Shown: piece after piece, positions 1 through 58,525 of the stretch
How the letters are laid out: each line of letters opens with the position of its first letter
Numbering within the stretch: the stretch's first letter is position 1
Position numbers and translations under genes: made by a program
Source: a virus
Direction: 5' to 3' (one strand)
Virus record (IMG/VR): IMGVR_UViG_3300021197_001797
Coordinates: 1-58,525 of that record
DNA length: 58,525 bases
Notes under the pieces: model-generated
Databases searched by the model: none
What the model was told of the DNA's origin: nothing
The model's input: only the letters and a program-made list of their open reading frames with translations

Positions 1-701
1 TGTTCAACTTTACGGGAGCACAGGCTACGTTCACATTGCCTGATCCAACTGTAGGTGGAGACAACTGGTTTTTATATTTAAGAAACTCAGGCTCTGGTGC
101 AATTACAGCAACACCTCCAGGATCTACCACGATTGATAGTGCAAGTACCTTGGCATTTCAACCAGGAGAGTCAGCCATTATAGCTACCGATGGGGTCAAT
201 TTCTTTACCATTGGATTTGGGCAATCGGCTACGTTTGCCTTTGACTACACTGTTATAGACATTCAGGGAAGTGGTGACAAAACACTTACTGGTACAGAGC
301 TTAATAGAGTTGCATACAGATTTACTGGTGCTTTAACTGGGGCAAGAAACATTATTGTTCCTGCTACTGTTCAACAATATTGGATTGATAATAGAACAAC
401 AGGTAGTTACGTTTTAACTGTCAAAGTTTCAGGACAAACCGGCGTGCAAGTTGGACAAAATACAAGAGGCATTTATTACTGTGATGGCTCAGATGTTTTA
501 GATGCTGATACAAGTACAGTTTCTTTTCCAATTGCTGTAAATCAAGGTGGAACAGGGGCAACTACTGCGACAAACGCCTTAATTAATCTAGGCGGTTCTG
601 CAACAGGTAGAGCTATTTTTACGTCAGCATCTCAAGCTGCAGCTTGGTCAGCATTAGGCGTTGCACAAAGTGGAAACATTAATGGTGGGGTATTTCCTTA
701 A
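1..701 (+). CDS. Tail fibre-like protein, C-terminal part (5' end cut by window)
   Basis: The reading frame is open from base 3 and matches residues from about 168 onward of the complete 400-residue protein at 55901-57103. On a circular map, 55901-56402 plus 1-701 gives exactly 401 codons. It holds two beta-rich repeat units (a DPTVGGDNW block and a NRVAYRFTGALTGARNI block) and the C-terminal GGTGATTA...NLGG motif typical of tail-fibre and collar proteins. An internal ATG at 36 is not a real start. It joins the nozzle gene through a TAATG overlap at 701. It is probably a structural component of the distal tail; a receptor-binding role is inferred only. Confidence 0.8.
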   Translation, partial: FNFTGAQATFTLPDPTVGGDNWFLYLRNSGSGAITATPPGSTTIDSASTLAFQPGESAIIATDGVNFFTIGFGQSATFAFDYTVIDIQGSGDKTLTGTELNRVAYRFTGALTGARNIIVPATVQQYWIDNRTTGSYVLTVKVSGQTGVQVGQNTRGIYYCDGSDVLDADTSTVSFPIAVNQGGTGATTATNALINLGGSATGRAIFTSASQAAAWSALGVAQSGNINGGVFP

Positions 702-2123
702 TGCCAGTTCAAACTACCGTCCTTAGATCTGATCCTGGAATCAAACGTGATGGCACTAAGTTTGAAGGCAACAACTATGTGGACGGACAATGGGTGCGTT
801 TTCAAAGAGGATTGCCAAGAAAAATAGGCGGTTATAAAACTACTCAAAAATACTTGTCTGAGATAAGTAGAGGGTTTGCTACTTTTTCACAGATGCTTTT
901 TGTGTATTGTCATTCAGGCGGTGACAACACTTTAGAAAGATTTACATTAGATCAAACAGGCAATAGCTCTATCGTCACTGACAGAACACCTGTTTTAGCT
1001 TATGCCTATGGCACTGTAACACTTGCAGGTGCCAGTGGTGCTGTAGATATGATTGCTGTAGACGGTGTGGACATAATGTCTGGGTCAGTGCCTTTTAACA
1101 CTGACATAAATCAAACAGCTACAGACGTTGCTTCTAATATAAATGCTTTTACTAGCACGCCAAATTATACAGCCAATGCGGTTGGGGCTGTTATTACAAT
1201 AACTTCTGTCACAGGTGGGGATCAAGTTAACGGTTTTATAATTACTAATACTTTAACAAATTTGACAAGCACTATAGTTAATATGGATTATGGAAGTGAT
1301 GCTTTAATAACATCTGTTCACAACTATTGGATGTTTGATTTTCAATACGACTCAAGCACTAATCAAAATTATGTGTTGGCACAGGTTAGCCCAAATGGTG
1401 ATTGCATTTGTAATGATCAAGATGGGCAAATATTTTTTGGCGAGGTGTTAGGAACAAATGTTTTACGATCTGTTTCATTGCCAGCAAATACAAATGTGAC
1501 AGGCGGTATCGTAAGTCTACACCCATATTTATTCTACTACGGAACGGACGGTATTATTGGATGGAGCATTCCAGGAAATCCTACTGATCTAACAGGCACA
1601 GGGTCAGGAAATGCACGAGTATGGGGTCAAAAAATAATAAAAGCACTTCCACTTAGAGCAGGTTCAGGAACAGCACCTGCGGGTCTATTTTGGGCGTTTG
1701 ACGCTGTTATTAGAGCTACTTTTGTAGGTGGAACAGCAATATTTCAATTTGATATTGTAGCAACAGATACTTCTATTTTATCACCATTTTCTCCGATAGA
1801 TTATGACGGTGTTTTTTACTGGGCAGGTGTTGATCGTTTTTATATGTTTAACGGTGTGGTTAGAGAAGTACCTAACTCATTGAATTTAAACTACTTTTTT
1901 GATGGAATTAATCGTAATGCAGCAACAAAATGCTTTGCATATAAAGTTCCAAGGTACGGTGAAATATGGTGGGCGTATCCAAAAGGTACAGCTACCGAAT
2001 GCACGCACGCTGTAGTTTATAACATTCGTGAAAATACATGGTATGACACAGAACTTCCTAATGATGGTCGATCAGCAGGTCAGTTTAACAATTCATTTGC
2101 CGCACCTATATTAACGGGCGTGC
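1..2123. repeat. Left copy of 2.1-kb diverged terminal repeat
   Basis: This stretch aligns base for base with 56403-58525 at a constant offset of 56,402, with no net insertion or deletion. Differences are scattered and mostly at third codon positions, at roughly 85-90% identity by eye, with long identical blocks. The final 127 bases (1997-2123) are exactly identical to 58399-58525; position 1996 is C where 58398 is A. I infer two strain alleles of one locus on a circular map rather than a true duplication. Confidence 0.9.
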
Positions 2124-2887
2124 AATCTTCTCCATTGCCATTAGATCCTACTGAGACATTTGCTGTTACAGTGGTTAATTCTGGTTCTGGTAACAAATAT
2201 AATATGAGTGGTAGCGCACAACCAACTTTAACTTTTAGAGAGGGCAACACTTACCGATTTGATCAATCTGATTCTTCTAACGTAGGTCATCCCTTGCGTC
2301 TGTCTTCAACATCAGATGGTACGCATGGCGGTGGTGTGGAATATACTACGGGTGTAACTGTTGTTGGTGTATTGGGACAAGCAGGTGCATACACACAAAT
2401 TATAGTACCAACTGGAGCACCAACTTTATATTATTATTGTGAAATTCATAGTGGAATGGGTGGTCAAATTAACACAAATGTTAGGGGGATTGGATATAAA
2501 GTTTGGCAACATGAATTTGGAGTAGATGAAATTGATGGTCCTACAATTACACCAATAAAATCATTTTTTGAAACTGCTGATCTTAGCACGCTAACTCAAG
2601 GTGCCAATCGTTATTTGAGAATAACACAAATTGAGCCAGATTTTGTTCAAGTCGGTGACATGACAGTAGAAATTACAGGCCGTGCAAATGCGAGAGCACC
2701 TGAAGTTACAAGTAGCACAGTTTCATTCCCTGCTTCTGCCACACAACCTTATGAGCAAATTGTCATGTTAAAAGAACAAAGAAGAGAATTAAGAGTTAAA
2801 TTTACATCCAATGCTTTGTATGGTGATTATCAGATGGGGCAGATAATAGGTCATATGGATGGTGGTGATGGAACGGATTTAGGGTAA
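701..2887 (+). CDS. Podovirus tail nozzle-like protein with inserted cupredoxin-like domain
   Basis: 728 residues. The N-terminal part (LRSDPGIKRDGTKFEGNNYV, then VRFQRGLPRKIGGYK) is typical of large beta-propeller-type tail proteins that form the nozzle or stabilisation ring of short-tailed phages. This is family-level recognition by eye. An Ig-like stretch sits near residues 110-195. Around residues 485-600 there is a foreign-looking domain with GHPLRLS and YYYCEIHSGMGG, placing His530, Cys580, His583 and Met586 as in a type 1 copper site with an amicyanin-like CxxHxxM loop. The C-terminal 120 residues return to tail-protein sequence. The gene overlaps its neighbours by TAATG on both sides. 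A second allele begins at 57103 but is cut before the copper-like domain. Confidence 0.75.
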   Translation: MPVQTTVLRSDPGIKRDGTKFEGNNYVDGQWVRFQRGLPRKIGGYKTTQKYLSEISRGFATFSQMLFVYCHSGGDNTLERFTLDQTGNSSIVTDRTPVLAYAYGTVTLAGASGAVDMIAVDGVDIMSGSVPFNTDINQTATDVASNINAFTSTPNYTANAVGAVITITSVTGGDQVNGFIITNTLTNLTSTIVNMDYGSDALITSVHNYWMFDFQYDSSTNQNYVLAQVSPNGDCICNDQDGQIFFGEVLGTNVLRSVSLPANTNVTGGIVSLHPYLFYYGTDGIIGWSIPGNPTDLTGTGSGNARVWGQKIIKALPLRAGSGTAPAGLFWAFDAVIRATFVGGTAIFQFDIVATDTSILSPFSPIDYDGVFYWAGVDRFYMFNGVVREVPNSLNLNYFFDGINRNAATKCFAYKVPRYGEIWWAYPKGTATECTHAVVYNIRENTWYDTELPNDGRSAGQFNNSFAAPILTGVQSSPLPLDPTETFAVTVVNSGSGNKYNMSGSAQPTLTFREGNTYRFDQSDSSNVGHPLRLSSTSDGTHGGGVEYTTGVTVVGVLGQAGAYTQIIVPTGAPTLYYYCEIHSGMGGQINTNVRGIGYKVWQHEFGVDEIDGPTITPIKSFFETADLSTLTQGANRYLRITQIEPDFVQVGDMTVEITGRANARAPEVTSSTVSFPASATQPYEQIVMLKEQRRELRVKFTSNALYGDYQMGQIIGHMDGGDGTDLG

Positions 2888-3120
2888 TGGCTTTAAGTGT
2901 AACTTTGCCTGTAGGAATTGAGTTAACAGATTGGGCAAATTGCTTAATTACAGATTTTGTAGAATTTGGTGCTTTTGATCCTTTAGATGATCCTGAAAAA
3001 TGGCAAGATTGGGGCACTCAATTCCTTAATGCTACGAATTTAGTAGAAGATTTTCCTGACCCATACGCATTTGACAACTGGCAAGATTGGGCTGAACGAT
3101 TTGTTCAGACAACGCTATGA
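2887..3120 (+). CDS. Small acidic virion-region protein
   Basis: 77 residues, acidic, with two copies of a W-Q-D-W element (KWQDWGTQF near residue 38 and NWQDWAERF near 65), so the protein may be an internal duplication. There is no signal peptide or membrane segment. It starts inside the stop of the nozzle gene (TAATG) and its own stop overlaps the next ATG (ATGA). This coupling and its place between nozzle and internal virion genes suggest a virion or assembly role. I do not recognise the family. Confidence 0.7.
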   Translation: MALSVTLPVGIELTDWANCLITDFVEFGAFDPLDDPEKWQDWGTQFLNATNLVEDFPDPYAFDNWQDWAERFVQTTL

Positions 3121-3566
3121 AGTTTATTGGATTTAGTAGAGAAGAAGAGGCTGAAAAGTGGGCAAGAGATAAGCTAGGTATAAAGGGTAACCCTGAATTT
3201 TTTAGGGCTATGTCGGCTGTAGATGATAAAGGTGAATTTGTTTGTGTAGCTATTTTCAACAACTTTACAAAAAGAAATATTGATGTAAACTTCGCTGCAA
3301 AAGAAGGTTATTGGTCAGCACCAAAAGAAACGATAAAAATGTTCAACGCTATATTTACTTACATATTCAAAATATCTGAAGCAGCAAGAGCAACTGCGTT
3401 GGTAGGAGAAAACAATTTAATTTCAAAGAAATTTGTTGCTAAACTTGGCTTTAAACACGAAGGTATAATGAGACGTGCTTATAAAAATAATGAGGATTTA
3501 AACATTTACGGTTTGTTGGCAGATGAATATAAAAACCATACTTGGGCGAGTGTGAGGAACAGATGA
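3117..3566 (+). CDS. GNAT-like acetyltransferase fold protein
   Basis: 149 residues. The C-terminal half carries the GNAT pattern NNLISKKFVAKLGFKHEG followed by RRAYKNNEDLNIYGLL, as in RimJ-like acetyltransferases, where the Q/R-x-x-G/A acetyl-CoA loop lies just before. Here that loop reads ALVGENN and is not canonical. GNAT-like proteins recur among tail and internal virion genes of short-tailed phages, and their substrate is generally unknown. The gene is coupled by ATGA to both neighbours. Catalytic activity is uncertain and a purely structural role is possible. Confidence 0.7.
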   Translation: MKFIGFSREEEAEKWARDKLGIKGNPEFFRAMSAVDDKGEFVCVAIFNNFTKRNIDVNFAAKEGYWSAPKETIKMFNAIFTYIFKISEAARATALVGENNLISKKFVAKLGFKHEGIMRRAYKNNEDLNIYGLLADEYKNHTWASVRNR

Positions 3567-38554: not shown

Positions 38555-39244
38555 ATGCCGTATCTACAAAGTAATATCCCACATTTCAAGTGTTGGGTCA
38601 GAAAAGATTACACTTTCAACCATGAAAAATTCCATGGAGAGTTCATTCATGCTATGGCAATTGCAGTTACAACAATTCCTTGTAGGAGTCTTAGTTTTCA
38701 GATGATTTTTACCGGAGCTGAAACATACGACAACAACGATCCCAATGTTCATGGCGGTGCAATGTGGGCAAGAATGCCTATAACAGCGTTAGTTGGCGAC
38801 ACGCCATTTGATGAGTGGCCTGTTCCGATGGCAACTCATGATGCGCAACCATGGGATTGTTCTTCTAGGACACATAGTGTTTATGTATTAGACAGATGCA
38901 CGCCTTGTCCTTGGATAGCTAAGATTGATGGAGAACTTTATCCAGCAAAATATTACTTCACTGTCGATTACACTGATTCAGAAATAGGAGACGATCCTGC
39001 TCAACACAAGCAGTCTCACGTCTTAGAACTTTTGGATGCCGGAAAATGGACAGGAAATATAGTAGCTTTGCCAAACAACAGGGTTAGAGTTACGCATCCA
39101 GCGTGGTTTGAGCTGGGAGAAGGAGCACCAGAGTTTCGTCCATCACAACACATCCACTACAGCAAGTCGGATTTGGACTACACTTTGGATGTTAATCGTG
39201 TTTTTGACAATCTATATCAGGAGAAAAATGATGATGAAAAGTAA
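38555..39244 (+). CDS. Hypothetical protein between portal and head genes
   Basis: 229 residues with a good RBS (GAGG-AAAA-ATG). Beta-rich, with several conserved-looking Trp/Cys positions: MPYLQSNIPHFKCWVRKDY, TGAETYDNNDPNVHGGAMWA, WPVPMATHDAQPWDCSS, and CTPCPWIAKIDGELYPAKYY. His and Cys clusters hint at metal binding or disulfides but no family is recognised. Its place between portal and scaffold suggests a head-assembly or virion protein. Confidence 0.7.
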   Translation: MPYLQSNIPHFKCWVRKDYTFNHEKFHGEFIHAMAIAVTTIPCRSLSFQMIFTGAETYDNNDPNVHGGAMWARMPITALVGDTPFDEWPVPMATHDAQPWDCSSRTHSVYVLDRCTPCPWIAKIDGELYPAKYYFTVDYTDSEIGDDPAQHKQSHVLELLDAGKWTGNIVALPNNRVRVTHPAWFELGEGAPEFRPSQHIHYSKSDLDYTLDVNRVFDNLYQEKNDDEK

Positions 39245-43996: not shown

Positions 43997-44443
43997 ATGG
44001 CTGATGCAGTCACAACTCAAGTTCTTCAAGATGGTGAGCGGTTATATATTGCCAAATTTACTAATATTTCTGATGGATCTGGGGAAGCAAAAGTAACCAA
44101 AGTTAATGTGTCAAGTTTAAATCCTAATTCTCACGGTTTAACCTGTATTGGTGTAAAAATTTCAAAAATATATGCTCAAACCGAAGACATGGGCGTGGAC
44201 ATATATTGGGTTGGAGATCCAACACCAGCTAATGATGCGTTGGCAATGACAATACCTCAAGGTCAATTATATGACATTGGCTATGATCCTTCTATTCCGT
44301 ACAATGGAGTAGGTGCTCTGGGAACTGGTGAAGCAGGAAATGTAGCTTTTAGCACTAGGAATGCTTCTGCTGGCGACACTTATACTATTATTCTATATGG
44401 AATAAAAGTTTATGCAGAAGCGATTCCAGGAGATCAAACATGA
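43997..44443 (+). CDS. Head/virion structural protein
   Basis: 148 residues. It has the strongest Shine-Dalgarno in the window (AAGGGAGGTG, six bases before ATG), implying abundant synthesis. Beta-rich, beginning ADAVTTQVLQDGERLYIAKF, with DMGVDIYWVGDPTPAND and TYTIILYGIKVYAE. Such proteins are conserved after the capsid gene in related marine phages. Abundance suggests a major virion component such as a head fibre or decoration. Overlaps the next gene by ATGA. Confidence 0.7.
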   Translation: MADAVTTQVLQDGERLYIAKFTNISDGSGEAKVTKVNVSSLNPNSHGLTCIGVKISKIYAQTEDMGVDIYWVGDPTPANDALAMTIPQGQLYDIGYDPSIPYNGVGALGTGEAGNVAFSTRNASAGDTYTIILYGIKVYAEAIPGDQT

Positions 44444-55268: not shown

Positions 55269-55901
55269 ATGAGCTATACAATGACATACGATAGCTTGCT
55301 AGTGGACATGAGGCGTTATTTAGAACGTGGATTTACACAGGCAAGCGATCAAATAGTCTTTGATCAACTGCCTCGTTTAATTACGTTGGCAGAAAGACGG
55401 ATAGCTCGTGAGTTAAAGATTGAAGGATTTATTAGGGCTGTAACAACGCCTTTAGCTGTTGGCGTTGCAACCTATTTGAAACCTGATAGATGGCGTGACA
55501 CTGTTAGTATGACGGTTGGTGGTTCTTCTATTTTTACTAGATCCTATGAATATTGCAGAAATTATTGGCCCAATGAGGCAGAAACTGGAAAACCTCAATT
55601 TTATGCTAATTATGACTATCAACATTGGTTAATTACACCTACACCAAGTGCTGTGCAAACACTAGAAGTGATCTATTATGAGCAACCTGCTTTGTTGGGG
55701 GATGACTTTCAAAGCAATTGGCTAACAGAATATGCACCAGAAGTATTGTTGTATGCATCATTGTTAGAGGCCACACCATTTCTGAAAAATGATGAAAGAG
55801 TGCAAATGTGGCAAGCATTATATGACAGATCAGCGCAGGCACTTAATGGTCAAGATCTAGGTCGTATTCTTGACAGATCCGCACAGAGGAGTGAATCGTA
55901 A
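55269..55901 (+). CDS. Tail adaptor protein (gp6/SU10-adaptor-like)
   Basis: 210 residues. Helical N-terminus (TYDSLLVDMRRYLERGF, then QLPRLITLAERRIARELKIE), beta region with DTVSMTVGG, then a C-terminal helical part (YAPEVLLYASLLEATPFLKN). This matches phage adaptor proteins that sit between portal and nozzle in short-tailed phages. Gene order (adaptor, fibre, nozzle) agrees. Start follows AAGGATTAAGCC and its stop forms TAATG with the fibre gene. Confidence 0.8.
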   Translation: MSYTMTYDSLLVDMRRYLERGFTQASDQIVFDQLPRLITLAERRIARELKIEGFIRAVTTPLAVGVATYLKPDRWRDTVSMTVGGSSIFTRSYEYCRNYWPNEAETGKPQFYANYDYQHWLITPTPSAVQTLEVIYYEQPALLGDDFQSNWLTEYAPEVLLYASLLEATPFLKNDERVQMWQALYDRSAQALNGQDLGRILDRSAQRSES

Positions 55902-57103
55902 TGCCTAGTTATACTGATGTATTTGGTGGGGCTAATATTTATCCAAGTGAAATTAGCTATAGCTCTTTAAATTTAACTGCCGATATAACACTGAGTTGGC
56001 CTGAAGAAACGTCAACTAATGTCAATTTAGCCACTAGAATTATTGACGTTACACAAGCAAGTGCAGGGTTTAGTATCATTTTACCTGATGCTAAAAAAAG
56101 TGGAACGGGTAACACTATCCTTTTTAATAACAGAGGATCACACACTTTTACTGTTAAAAGTTCAGGCGGTACTTCAGTTGGTACGATTGCTTCTGGTCAA
56201 TTATGGCAAGTTTATCTCACTGATAATTCTACAGTCGATGGAACATGGGTGCTACTGCAATATGGTGCGACCACTTCTAACGCTAATGCAAGTTCATTAG
56301 CTGGTACAGGCATAGTTGCTGTCGGAACTTTGTTAAGTCAATCTGTTCCAGTAAGTTCAATAAATAGTTCCTATGTTAGCGGTGTTGATGATCGTGCAAA
56401 GATGTTCAATTTTACGGGAGCACAGGCTACTTTTACATTGCCCGACCCAACTGTAGGTGGAGACAACTGGTTTTTATATTTAAGAAACTCAGGCTCTGGT
56501 GCAATTACAGCAACACCTCCAGGATCTACAACAATTGATGGTGCTGGAACACTGGCGTTTCAGCCAGGAGAGTCAGCCATTATTGCTACTGATGGAACTA
56601 ACTTTTTTACAATTGGTTTTGGACAATCGGCAACATTTGCATTTGATTACACTGTTATAGACATTGCTGGAACTGGTGACAAAGTACTTACTGGTACAGA
56701 ACTTAACAGAGTTGCATACAGATTTACTGGTGCGTTAACTGGGGCAAGAAATATTATTGTTCCTGCTACTGTTCAACAGTATTGGATTGATAATAGAACA
56801 ACAGGTAGTCACGTTTTAACTGTTAAAGTTGCGGGACAAACTGGAGAAATTATAACTCAAGGTAGTAGAGGAATTTACTATTGTGATGGAAATGATGTTT
56901 TAGACGCTGACACATCAACTGTAGCTTTCCCTATTACTATACTTCAAGGTGGAACTGAAGCAACCACAGCAGCACAGGCAAGAATTAATTTAGGGGGAGG
57001 TAGTACGGGGATTTCATTATTTCAATCTACTACACAACCAGATGCTTGGGCTGCAATGGGCGTGGCATTGAGCGGAGTAGTTAACGGAGGGGTATTTACT
57101 TAA
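55901..57103 (+). CDS. Tail fibre-like protein with three beta repeats (complete copy)
   Basis: 400 residues. Three successive units of about 80-95 residues share a pattern: one around FSIILPDAKKSGTGNTILFN, one around ATFTLPDPTVGGDNWFLYLR, one around ARNIIVPATVQQYWIDNRTT; each ends near a Gly/aromatic strand (QLWQVYLTD, ESAIIATDG, RGIYYCDGN). The C-terminus is LQGGTEATTAAQARINLGGG as in tail collar or fibre proteins. From 56403 it is the second allele of window start; the first 502 bases are unique. TAATG leads into the nozzle copy. Confidence 0.85.
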   Translation: MPSYTDVFGGANIYPSEISYSSLNLTADITLSWPEETSTNVNLATRIIDVTQASAGFSIILPDAKKSGTGNTILFNNRGSHTFTVKSSGGTSVGTIASGQLWQVYLTDNSTVDGTWVLLQYGATTSNANASSLAGTGIVAVGTLLSQSVPVSSINSSYVSGVDDRAKMFNFTGAQATFTLPDPTVGGDNWFLYLRNSGSGAITATPPGSTTIDGAGTLAFQPGESAIIATDGTNFFTIGFGQSATFAFDYTVIDIAGTGDKVLTGTELNRVAYRFTGALTGARNIIVPATVQQYWIDNRTTGSHVLTVKVAGQTGEIITQGSRGIYYCDGNDVLDADTSTVAFPITILQGGTEATTAAQARINLGGGSTGISLFQSTTQPDAWAAMGVALSGVVNGGVFT

Positions 57104-58525
57104 TGCCAATCCAAACAACAGTTTTACGTTCAGAGCCAGGAATTAAACGCGATGGCACTAAATTTGATGGTAATAACTATGTTGATGGTCAATGGGTACG
57201 TTTTCAAAGAGGATTACCTAGAAAAATAGGTGGATATAAAACCACTCAAAAGTATTTGTCTGAGGTAAGTAGAGGGTTTGCTACATTCTCACAAATGCTA
57301 TTTGTTTACTGTCATTCTGGCGGTGACAACACGTTAGAGAGATTTACATTAGATCAAACAGGCAATAGCTCTATCGTCACTGACAGAACACCTGTTTTGG
57401 CTTCTGCTTATGGAACTGTAACAATTGCAGGTGTTAGTGGTGCTGTAGATATGATCGCTGTAGACGGTGTGAACATAATGTCTGGGTCAGTGGCTTTTAA
57501 TACTGACATAAATCAAACAGCCACAGATGTTGCCTCTAATATCACTGCTTTCACAAGCACACCAAATTATACAGCTAATGCTGTTGGGGCAATCATCACA
57601 ATTACTTCTGCTACAGCAGGAGATCAGGCCAACAATTTTATTATAACAACTACTTTGACCACTTTAACAAGCACTATTGTCAACATGAATTATGGCAGTG
57701 ATGCGCTAATAACATCTATTGATAACTATTGGATGTTTGATTTTCAATATGACTCAAGCACAAATCAAAATTATGTGTTAGCACAGGTTAGCCCAAATGG
57801 TGATTGTATTTGTAATGATCAAGACGGACAAATATTTTTTGGCGAAGTGCTAGGAACGGATGTTTTAAGGTCTGTTTCACTGCCAGCTAATACTAATGTA
57901 ACAGGCGGTATTGTTTCGTTGCACCCATATCTTTTTTACTATGGGACTGATGGAATAATTGGTTGGAGCATTCCAGGAAATCCCACAGATCTTTTAGGAA
58001 CAGGGTCAGGAAATGCACGAGTGTGGGGTCAAAAAATAATAAAAGGGCTTCCACTTAGAGCAGGTTCAGGAACAGCTCCTGCGGGTATATTCTGGGCGTT
58101 TGACGCTGTGATTAGAGCTACTTTCGTAGGGGGAGCTTCTGTATTTCAATTTGATATTGTGGCAACAGATACTAGTATTTTGTCACCATTTAGCCCAATA
58201 GATTATGACGGTGTGTTTTACTGGGCTGGTGTGGATCGTTTTTATATGTTTAACGGAGTGGTTAGAGAAGTACCTAACTCATTGAATTTAAATTACTTTT
58301 TTGATGGAATTAATCGCAATGCGGCAACAAAATGTTTCTCATATAAAGTTCCAAGATTTGGTGAAATATGGTGGGCATATCCAAAAGGCACAGCCACAGA
58401 ATGCACGCACGCTGTAGTTTATAACATTCGTGAAAATACATGGTATGACACAGAACTTCCTAATGATGGTCGATCAGCAGGTCAGTTTAACAATTCATTT
58501 GCCGCACCTATATTAACGGGCGTGC
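56403..58525. repeat. Right copy of 2.1-kb diverged terminal repeat
   Basis: Aligned to 1-2123 without net indels. 58399-58525 is an exact 127-base match to 1997-2123 and runs to the last base of the window. Best explained as an alternative allele of the same locus that rejoins the main path. The non-redundant circular map would then be 56,402 bp. Confidence 0.9.
57103..58525 (+). CDS. Tail nozzle-like protein, N-terminal 474 residues (3' end cut by window)
   Basis: Open to the last base. It begins MPIQTTVLRSEPGIKRDG, compared with MPVQTTVLRSDPGIKRDG at 701, and is colinear with residues 1-474 of that protein. Amino-acid changes are few and clustered (for example the Ig-like stretch near 110-190: DGVNIMSGSVAF versus DGVDIMSGSVPF). 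The cupredoxin-like segment lies beyond the cut. It is read as a second allele of the 701-2887 gene, not a separate gene. Confidence 0.85.
   Translation, partial: MPIQTTVLRSEPGIKRDGTKFDGNNYVDGQWVRFQRGLPRKIGGYKTTQKYLSEVSRGFATFSQMLFVYCHSGGDNTLERFTLDQTGNSSIVTDRTPVLASAYGTVTIAGVSGAVDMIAVDGVNIMSGSVAFNTDINQTATDVASNITAFTSTPNYTANAVGAIITITSATAGDQANNFIITTTLTTLTSTIVNMNYGSDALITSIDNYWMFDFQYDSSTNQNYVLAQVSPNGDCICNDQDGQIFFGEVLGTDVLRSVSLPANTNVTGGIVSLHPYLFYYGTDGIIGWSIPGNPTDLLGTGSGNARVWGQKIIKGLPLRAGSGTAPAGIFWAFDAVIRATFVGGASVFQFDIVATDTSILSPFSPIDYDGVFYWAGVDRFYMFNGVVREVPNSLNLNYFFDGINRNAATKCFSYKVPRFGEIWWAYPKGTATECTHAVVYNIRENTWYDTELPNDGRSAGQFNNSFAAPILTGV

What the first reader, a model, noticed from the sequence alone, without database searches (positions are those of the whole stretch)
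2150..2510. Cupredoxin-like copper site inside a phage tail nozzle protein
Within the nozzle-like protein, a segment of about 110 residues has GHPLRLS (His530) and YYYCEIHSGMGG (Cys580, His583, Met586). The order His...Cys-x2-His-x2-Met is the ligand set of type 1 copper proteins, with amicyanin-like spacing. A redox-type or metal-binding domain in a short-tail nozzle is unexpected; it might stabilise the tail tip, bind a host surface, or sense the environment.
Basis: partly seen in the sequence, partly recalled or inferred. Interest (0 to 1): 0.75.

Follow-up and report, generated by a model that had tools for sequence, protein, structure and literature searches.

The report
Copper-protein-like module on marine phage virions
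A short-tailed marine virus of bacteria carries, plugged into its tail nozzle, a copper-protein-like domain with all four copper-holding residues intact, and the same undescribed domain appears on many other ocean phage particles and on adhesion-like proteins of ocean bacteria and archaea, so it looks like a shared exposed binding module rather than a nozzle part.

Summary
Residues ~485-594 of the 728-aa protein at 701-2887 form a separate domain with H530, C580, H583 and M586. AlphaFold2 gives a confident cupredoxin-like sandwich (pLDDT 87), and its best PDB matches are copper nitrite reductase, AcoP, rusticyanin and amicyanin. The host protein is a P22/SU10-type nozzle by sequence. The four ligands are kept in 240/240 distinct relatives and in 21/22 BLAST-found records; Cyanophage PSS2 lost H, C and H together. 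A cellular member passes Pfam's Copper-bind cut-off, but the domain has no family of its own in Pfam or NCBIfam.

It is not a nozzle feature. Of 80 nozzle relatives 59 lack it, 17 carry it at this site, and 4 carry it inside another inserted domain. In the nearest nozzle clade without it, all four contigs tested carry it instead on a gene just downstream of the major capsid gene. Elsewhere it sits on tail fibres, T4-like cyanophage structural proteins, and cadherin-, RTX- or collagen-bearing proteins of marine bacteria and archaea.

Best reading: a mobile, surface-displayed cupredoxin module, probably copper-binding, used for surface binding as Ig-like domains are on other phages. Copper binding and function are untested; ligand distances could not be measured.

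The parts
701..2887 (+). Nozzle (tail tube, P22 gp10/SU10 gp17-type) protein, 728 aa
   Evidence: phmmer to Pa223 tail chain 9nwi_Y E=2e-12 and 8zkk/8zkm 'nozzle gp16' E=1e-6; profile E=2e-17 and 3e-11; phrog_3287 virion structural protein
2153..2482 (+). Inserted cupredoxin-like domain, residues about 485-594 (site C, between nozzle core and C-terminal part)
   Evidence: AF2 pLDDT 87.1, pTM 0.81; Foldseek PDB best hits cupredoxins; absent in 59/80 nozzle relatives
2288..2290 (+). His530, putative Cu ligand 1
   Evidence: invariant; loop just before a predicted strand
2438..2440 (+). Cys580, putative Cu ligand 2
   Evidence: invariant; end of predicted strand 97-101 of the model
2447..2449 (+). 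His583, putative Cu ligand 3
   Evidence: invariant
2456..2458 (+). Met586, putative axial Cu ligand
   Evidence: invariant
2324..2326 (+). His542 in the conserved DGTHGGG loop; highly conserved but not a ligand candidate (W or lost in some relatives)
986..1315 (+). Second inserted domain of the nozzle (residues about 96-205); in L297, L298, L308 and L323 the cupredoxin domain is nested inside it (site N)
   Evidence: well predicted in the full-length model (about 90 pLDDT)
43997..44443 (+). 148-aa protein downstream of the major capsid gene; here without the domain, but its homologue in the nearest nozzle clade (L364, L372-L374, 258 aa) carries the domain at its C-terminus
   Evidence: 68% identity over 139 aa
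42467..43381 (+). Major capsid protein gene
   Evidence: Phage_capsid_4 E=6.5e-10; phrog_4523 and phrog_133
55269..55901 (+). SU10-type adaptor protein
   Evidence: PF24175 E=2e-27
57103..58524 (+). Second, diverged copy of the nozzle gene start (474 aa, 94% identical in protein) cut by the contig end exactly at the insertion junction

Best explanation
The segment is an autonomous cupredoxin-fold domain of a widespread marine family that has no Pfam or NCBIfam entry. It has been inserted into a linker, probably surface-exposed, of a P22/SU10-type nozzle. Six copies per tail are expected because such nozzles are hexamers (inferred). It keeps a complete type-1 copper ligand set (His, Cys, His, Met) and most likely binds copper. 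It works as a mobile display module: the domain is carried on the outside of the virion, on the nozzle, on a probable head-decoration protein or on a fibre, where it most likely gives weak, reversible binding to host-cell or particle surfaces, as Ig-like domains do on other phages. Shown: sequence, fold prediction, ligand conservation, recurrent gain/loss and relocation. Inferred: copper binding, surface exposure, adhesive role.
For: Confident AF2 model with cupredoxins as the leading PDB fold matches (2dv6 E=2.5e-4, AcoP, rusticyanin, amicyanin). Pfam Copper-bind: cellular member L240/L250 over the cut-off; hhalign to another Copper-bind hit (L248) with probability 95.8%, E=7e-9 and H, C, H, M aligned. 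Ligands kept in 240/240 and 21/22; in PSS2 H, C and H are lost together, as expected of a metal site. Modularity: site C in 17, site N in 4, none in 59 of 80 nozzles; starred branches force at least 5 label changes for site C. Relocation to a capsid-neighbour gene in 4 of 4 contigs tested of the nearest nozzle clade. Same domain in fibres and structural proteins of 51 phage records, named as cyanophages, Pelagibacter or Methylophilales phages or other marine viruses, in 70 of 151 genomes of one SAR86 order, and with cadherin, RTX, Calx-beta or collagen domains.
Against: No measured copper, no coordinates to check ligand geometry, no binding partner. PDB TM-scores are only about 0.5. The His ligand is followed by Pro, not Asn as in plastocyanin or amicyanin (own knowledge). 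Part of the conservation count comes from loci found with patterns that include C and H; the BLAST-found set does not have that bias. Surface exposure of site C rests on analogy with the SU10 nozzle (PMC9509320), since the full-length model failed (pLDDT 49).
Confidence: 0.55

Rival explanations
1. Structural spacer: a cupredoxin-fold domain used only as a rigid beta-sandwich filler or stabiliser of the nozzle; metal binding, if any, only stabilises the fold.
For: PSS2 gp080 keeps the fold signature after losing three ligands. Cupredoxin and Ig sandwiches are common inert modules.
Against: Near-total retention of all four ligands across very different proteins. The domain is missing from most close nozzle relatives and from a full-size relative genome, so the nozzle does not need it.
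Confidence: 0.2
2. Metal lure: a copper-loaded domain that docks on host metal or chalkophore uptake receptors, by analogy with the iron 'Ferrojan horse' idea for tail-fibre iron.
For: Complete type-1 ligand set on exposed virion proteins of ocean phages. Iron in phage tail fibres is documented for T4 and proposed for marine phages (PMC11705849).
Against: No receptor link tested. The domain also sits in large bacterial and archaeal surface-type proteins and on a capsid-neighbour protein, where a receptor-docking role is less natural. Type-1 sites bury copper and do not usually hand it over (own knowledge).
Confidence: 0.12
3. Redox or electron-transfer function on the virion.
For: Ligand set and fold of electron-transfer cupredoxins.
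Against: No redox partner gene or domain identified; occurs alone beside adhesion-type domains.
Confidence: 0.06
4. Assembly chimera: the domain was joined to the nozzle gene artificially in this metagenome contig.
For: The window ends are an imperfect 2.1-kb overlap (85.7% identity), so the contig probably mixes strains, and the second nozzle copy stops at the insertion junction.
Against: The same fusion is found in independent contigs from many samples with 95-99% identity, always in frame.
Confidence: 0.02

Closest known systems
Plastocyanin/azurin family (Pfam PF00127 Copper-bind)
   Same: His...Cys-x2-His-x2(4)-Met order, cupredoxin fold, and a detectable profile link through cellular members.
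   Different: The phage members do not reach the Pfam cut-off (best E 0.096). His is followed by Pro rather than Asn. There is a conserved DGTHGGG loop, and the domain is embedded in virion or adhesin-like proteins rather than being a free electron carrier.
Amicyanin
   Same: Cys-x2-His-x2-Met loop; in the PDB fold list (3rym, 2idq).
   Different: Longer His-Cys spacing (50 versus 39 residues, own knowledge), about 13-17% identity, no amine dehydrogenase partner.
Ig-like display domains on phages (T4 Hoc and relatives; PMC10385173 and the 2006 Fraser et al. paper it cites)
   Same: A promiscuous beta-sandwich module on virion proteins of unrelated phages, dispensable, variably placed.
   Different: Cupredoxin topology with a conserved metal ligand set; so far seen in marine phages and mostly marine microbes.
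SU10 gp17 / P22-type nozzle with inserted nozzle domains (PMC9509320)
   Same: Nozzle core with inserted beta domains; an SU10-type adaptor gene in the same genome.
   Different: SU10's four inserted domains are Ig-like; here one insert is a cupredoxin-like domain between core and C-terminal part.
Iron-binding HxH tail fibres (T4 gp37; alterophage R22Y, PMC11705849)
   Same: Putative transition-metal sites on phage tails in the ocean.
   Different: HxH pairs in trimeric fibres versus a single-chain type-1 copper ligand set in a folded domain.

Membership tests
Cupredoxin fold | Greek-key beta sandwich matching cupredoxins | tested here: met
   AF2 pLDDT 87, pTM 0.81; Foldseek PDB best matches are cupredoxins, E 2.5e-4 and up, TM about 0.5. 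No phmmer or profile match in the PDB by sequence.
Type-1 copper site | His, Cys, His (+Met) ligands conserved | tested here: met
   240/240 distinct sequences; 21/22 BLAST-found records, one of them with C-x2-H-x4-M.
Type-1 copper site | Ligands converge in space in a trigonal or tetrahedral site | not testable with these tools
   Model coordinates not released; only the order relative to strands is consistent.
Type-1 copper site | Copper bound; about 600-nm absorption | not testable with these tools
   Needs expressed protein.
Pfam PF00127 Copper-bind | Profile score over 21.2 bits | tested here: inconclusive
   Window domain: no match. Two of 37 viral members match weakly, best E 0.096. Cellular members over the cut-off: 21.4-24.5 bits.
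Amicyanin | Amicyanin-type Cys loop plus close sequence identity and a redox partner | tested here: not met
   Only the loop spacing agrees; identity about 13-17% in fold alignments.
P22/SU10-type nozzle protein | Homology to solved nozzle chains | tested here: met
   9nwi_Y E=2e-12, 8zkk 'nozzle gp16' E=1e-6; profile 2e-17 and 3e-11.
Phage display modules (Ig-like-domain behaviour) | Found on several virion protein types, with gain/loss between close relatives | tested here: met
Phage display modules (Ig-like-domain behaviour) | Ig fold itself | tested here: not met
   Top PDB matches are cupredoxins; Ig hits are weaker.

The most novel reading that the evidence does not exclude
Many marine phage virions are copper proteins: a mobile type-1 copper domain shared with the surface proteins of marine microbes is moved between nozzle, capsid-associated protein and fibres, and its bound copper is needed for attachment to cells or particles in the sea.
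Probability: 0.25. Interest if true: 0.85.

Novelty: new variant of a known kind. Interest (0 to 1): 0.62.

Why it matters
If the domain binds copper, a sizeable group of ocean phages, including cultured cyanophages and SAR11 phages, carry type-1 copper sites on their particles. That bears on how marine phages attach and on trace-metal budgets of virus particles, and can be tested directly on cultured isolates. It also points to a protein family common in SAR86 and other uncultured marine microbes that Pfam and NCBIfam do not hold. The relocation of one domain between the nozzle and a capsid-neighbour gene in close relatives is a natural experiment suggesting that selection acts on display of the domain rather than on nozzle mechanics.

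Tried and rejected
Sequence searches of the PDB with the domain and its profile: no hits. Pfam and NCBIfam with viral members: no family, only weak plastocyanin/Copper-bind hits. hhalign with azurin-type sequences: no signal; with pseudoazurin-type sequences: weak and misaligned at the first His. Full-length nozzle AF2 model: too poor for placing the domain (pLDDT 49); its fold search is used only as weak support. Tree of the domain itself: too few columns to resolve origins. Literature: no paper found describing this domain in phage virions; the library holds open-licence PMC papers only. An earlier notebook figure of 20/21 isolates was miscounted; the correct count is 21/22. Assembly chimera was considered and rejected because independent contigs carry the same fusion.

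Full report
Observation. The pattern H-x(30-80)-C-x2-H-x2-M is rare by chance: 0.06% of shuffles of this protein, and one open frame of 89 in the window (this one) when looser loop lengths are allowed.

The host protein is a nozzle. It matches the Pa223 tail chain 9nwi_Y at E=2e-12 and chains deposited as 'nozzle gp16' and 'nozzle of release VP1' at E=1e-6; with a family profile the values are 2e-17 and 3e-11. An SU10-type adaptor gene lies in the same genome (PF24175, E=2e-27), and nozzle relatives in Caulobacter phages lack the insert.

Fold. AlphaFold2 with 37 viral relatives gives pLDDT 87.1 and pTM 0.81. H530 sits in a loop just before a strand, C580 ends a strand, and H583 and M586 lie in the loop before the last strand, which is the cupredoxin layout. 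Foldseek against the PDB puts copper nitrite reductase first (E=2.5e-4), followed by a multicopper oxidase, AcoP, rusticyanin and amicyanin; TM-scores are about 0.5, so this is a distant relative. In the library of viral models, 69 proteins match at E<=0.001, among them cyanophage virion proteins and tail fibres.

Homology by sequence. The viral members are too far from Pfam Copper-bind to match well on their own. Cellular members of the same family bridge the gap: the Woeseiaceae protein in L240 (the same as L250) and its relative L259 score over Pfam's cut-off in the same stretch that my family profile matches. A profile comparison with another Copper-bind hit, L248, gives 95.8% probability and aligns His, Cys, His and Met.

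Ligand conservation. All 240 distinct domain sequences keep H, C, H and M, while the nearby conserved His542 is not always kept. Because some collection scans used patterns containing Cys and His, I checked 22 phage records found by BLAST alone: 21 keep all four, one of these with a C-x2-H-x4-M loop, and only Cyanophage PSS2 gp080 has lost them, with H, C and H gone together. Joint loss is what a metal site predicts.

Modular behaviour in the nozzle. Among 80 nozzle sequences with full core and C-terminal parts, 59 have no such domain, 17 have it at the window's site (C) and 4 have it inside another inserted domain (site N). On a tree built without the insert, starred branches force at least five changes for site C. 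L279 and L286 are close neighbours that differ by the whole domain; the 56.6-kb record of L279 has none anywhere. The empty site has about 10 residues in place of about 115-120.

Relocation. The nearest nozzle clade (L266-L274, 87-89% identical in the core) lacks the domain in the nozzle. In all four of its longer contigs that I searched (G163, G169, G170, G185) the domain is instead the C-terminus of a 258-aa protein. That protein is the homologue (68%) of the window's 148-aa protein at 43997-44443, which has no domain and lies two genes after the major capsid gene. It is therefore a candidate head-decoration protein; this role is inferred from position only. In five contigs filed under bacterial MAGs (L162-L165, L193) a domain-bearing protein also lies about 4-5 kb downstream of a homologue of this capsid gene, so those are phage contigs.

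Wider distribution. The domain occurs in 51 of 50,697 phage records: Synechococcus and Prochlorococcus phages and cyanophages, Pelagibacter and Methylophilales phages, and a few marine or uncultured viruses, often called tail fibre or virion structural protein. At least 591 stretches in viral contigs and 101 in genome contigs encode it. In one SAR86 order 70 of 151 genomes have a match. Cellular proteins pair it with cadherin/Big_9, RTX and Calx-beta, collagen or lectin-type domains, which points to exposed, adhesion-type surroundings. Not every GTDB hit is cellular: some are phage contigs, such as a T7-type tail fibre in L173.

Mechanism. In SU10, whose nozzle has a platform, a propeller and inserted Ig-like domains, blades 1-3 lie away from the tail axis, blade 1 is where the chain enters from and leaves to the two halves of the platform domain, and blade 1 also holds the short-fibre dock (PMC9509320). 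By analogy site C, between core and C-terminal part, should be on the outer face of the tail hub in six copies; this is inferred, as the full-length model is too poor to check. The combination of dispensability, two nozzle sites, relocation to a capsid-neighbour gene and use in bacterial adhesin-like proteins argues against a mechanical role in the nozzle and for a displayed binding module. The closest functional parallel is the Ig-like domains of Hoc and relatives, which bind surfaces and are displayed on capsids in several ways (PMC10385173). Whether copper is bound and needed is open; iron on phage tails is an established precedent (PMC11705849).

Verdict. Copper binding I rate about 0.7, an adhesive or surface-binding role about 0.5, and a true redox role below 0.1.

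Noticed in passing
window 1-2123 and 56403-58525: Imperfect terminal overlap (85.7% identity, 293 mismatches). Together with relatives of 54.8-58.6 kb this suggests a circularly permuted genome of about 56.4 kb whose contig ends come from different strains. The second copy ends exactly at the domain insertion junction (residue 474), as expected if assembly broke at a polymorphic site.
   Followed up: partly
window 986-1315: A second domain inserted in the nozzle (residues about 96-205), itself absent in some relatives (L279, L286, L316, L325, L335, L340). The full-length model's fold search shows about 117-residue matches to tail proteins of Agrobacterium phages Milano and 7-7-1, possibly through this domain.
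   Followed up: partly
window 38555-39244: 229-aa protein matching a PHROG labelled 'ferredoxin' (phrog_3704, E=6.5e-26), but without an obvious iron-sulphur Cys motif; the label may be wrong.
   Followed up: no
window 3117-3566: GNAT-type acyltransferase gene right after the nozzle gene (phrog_4470, E=9e-21).
   Followed up: no
L356 (Cyanophage PSS2 gp080, about 112 aa): Stand-alone domain protein in which H, C and H are lost while M is kept; a natural no-ligand control.
   Followed up: partly
SAR86 genomes and L212:1585-3492:-: A roughly 636-aa SAR86 protein family carries a more distant copy of the domain (HPF...CDFHAGM in L212, E=5.7e-5); no confident family assignment.
   Followed up: partly
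L206: A member in an Epulopiscium single-cell genome, whose host is a fish-gut bacterium; the one clear hit outside free seawater.
   Followed up: no
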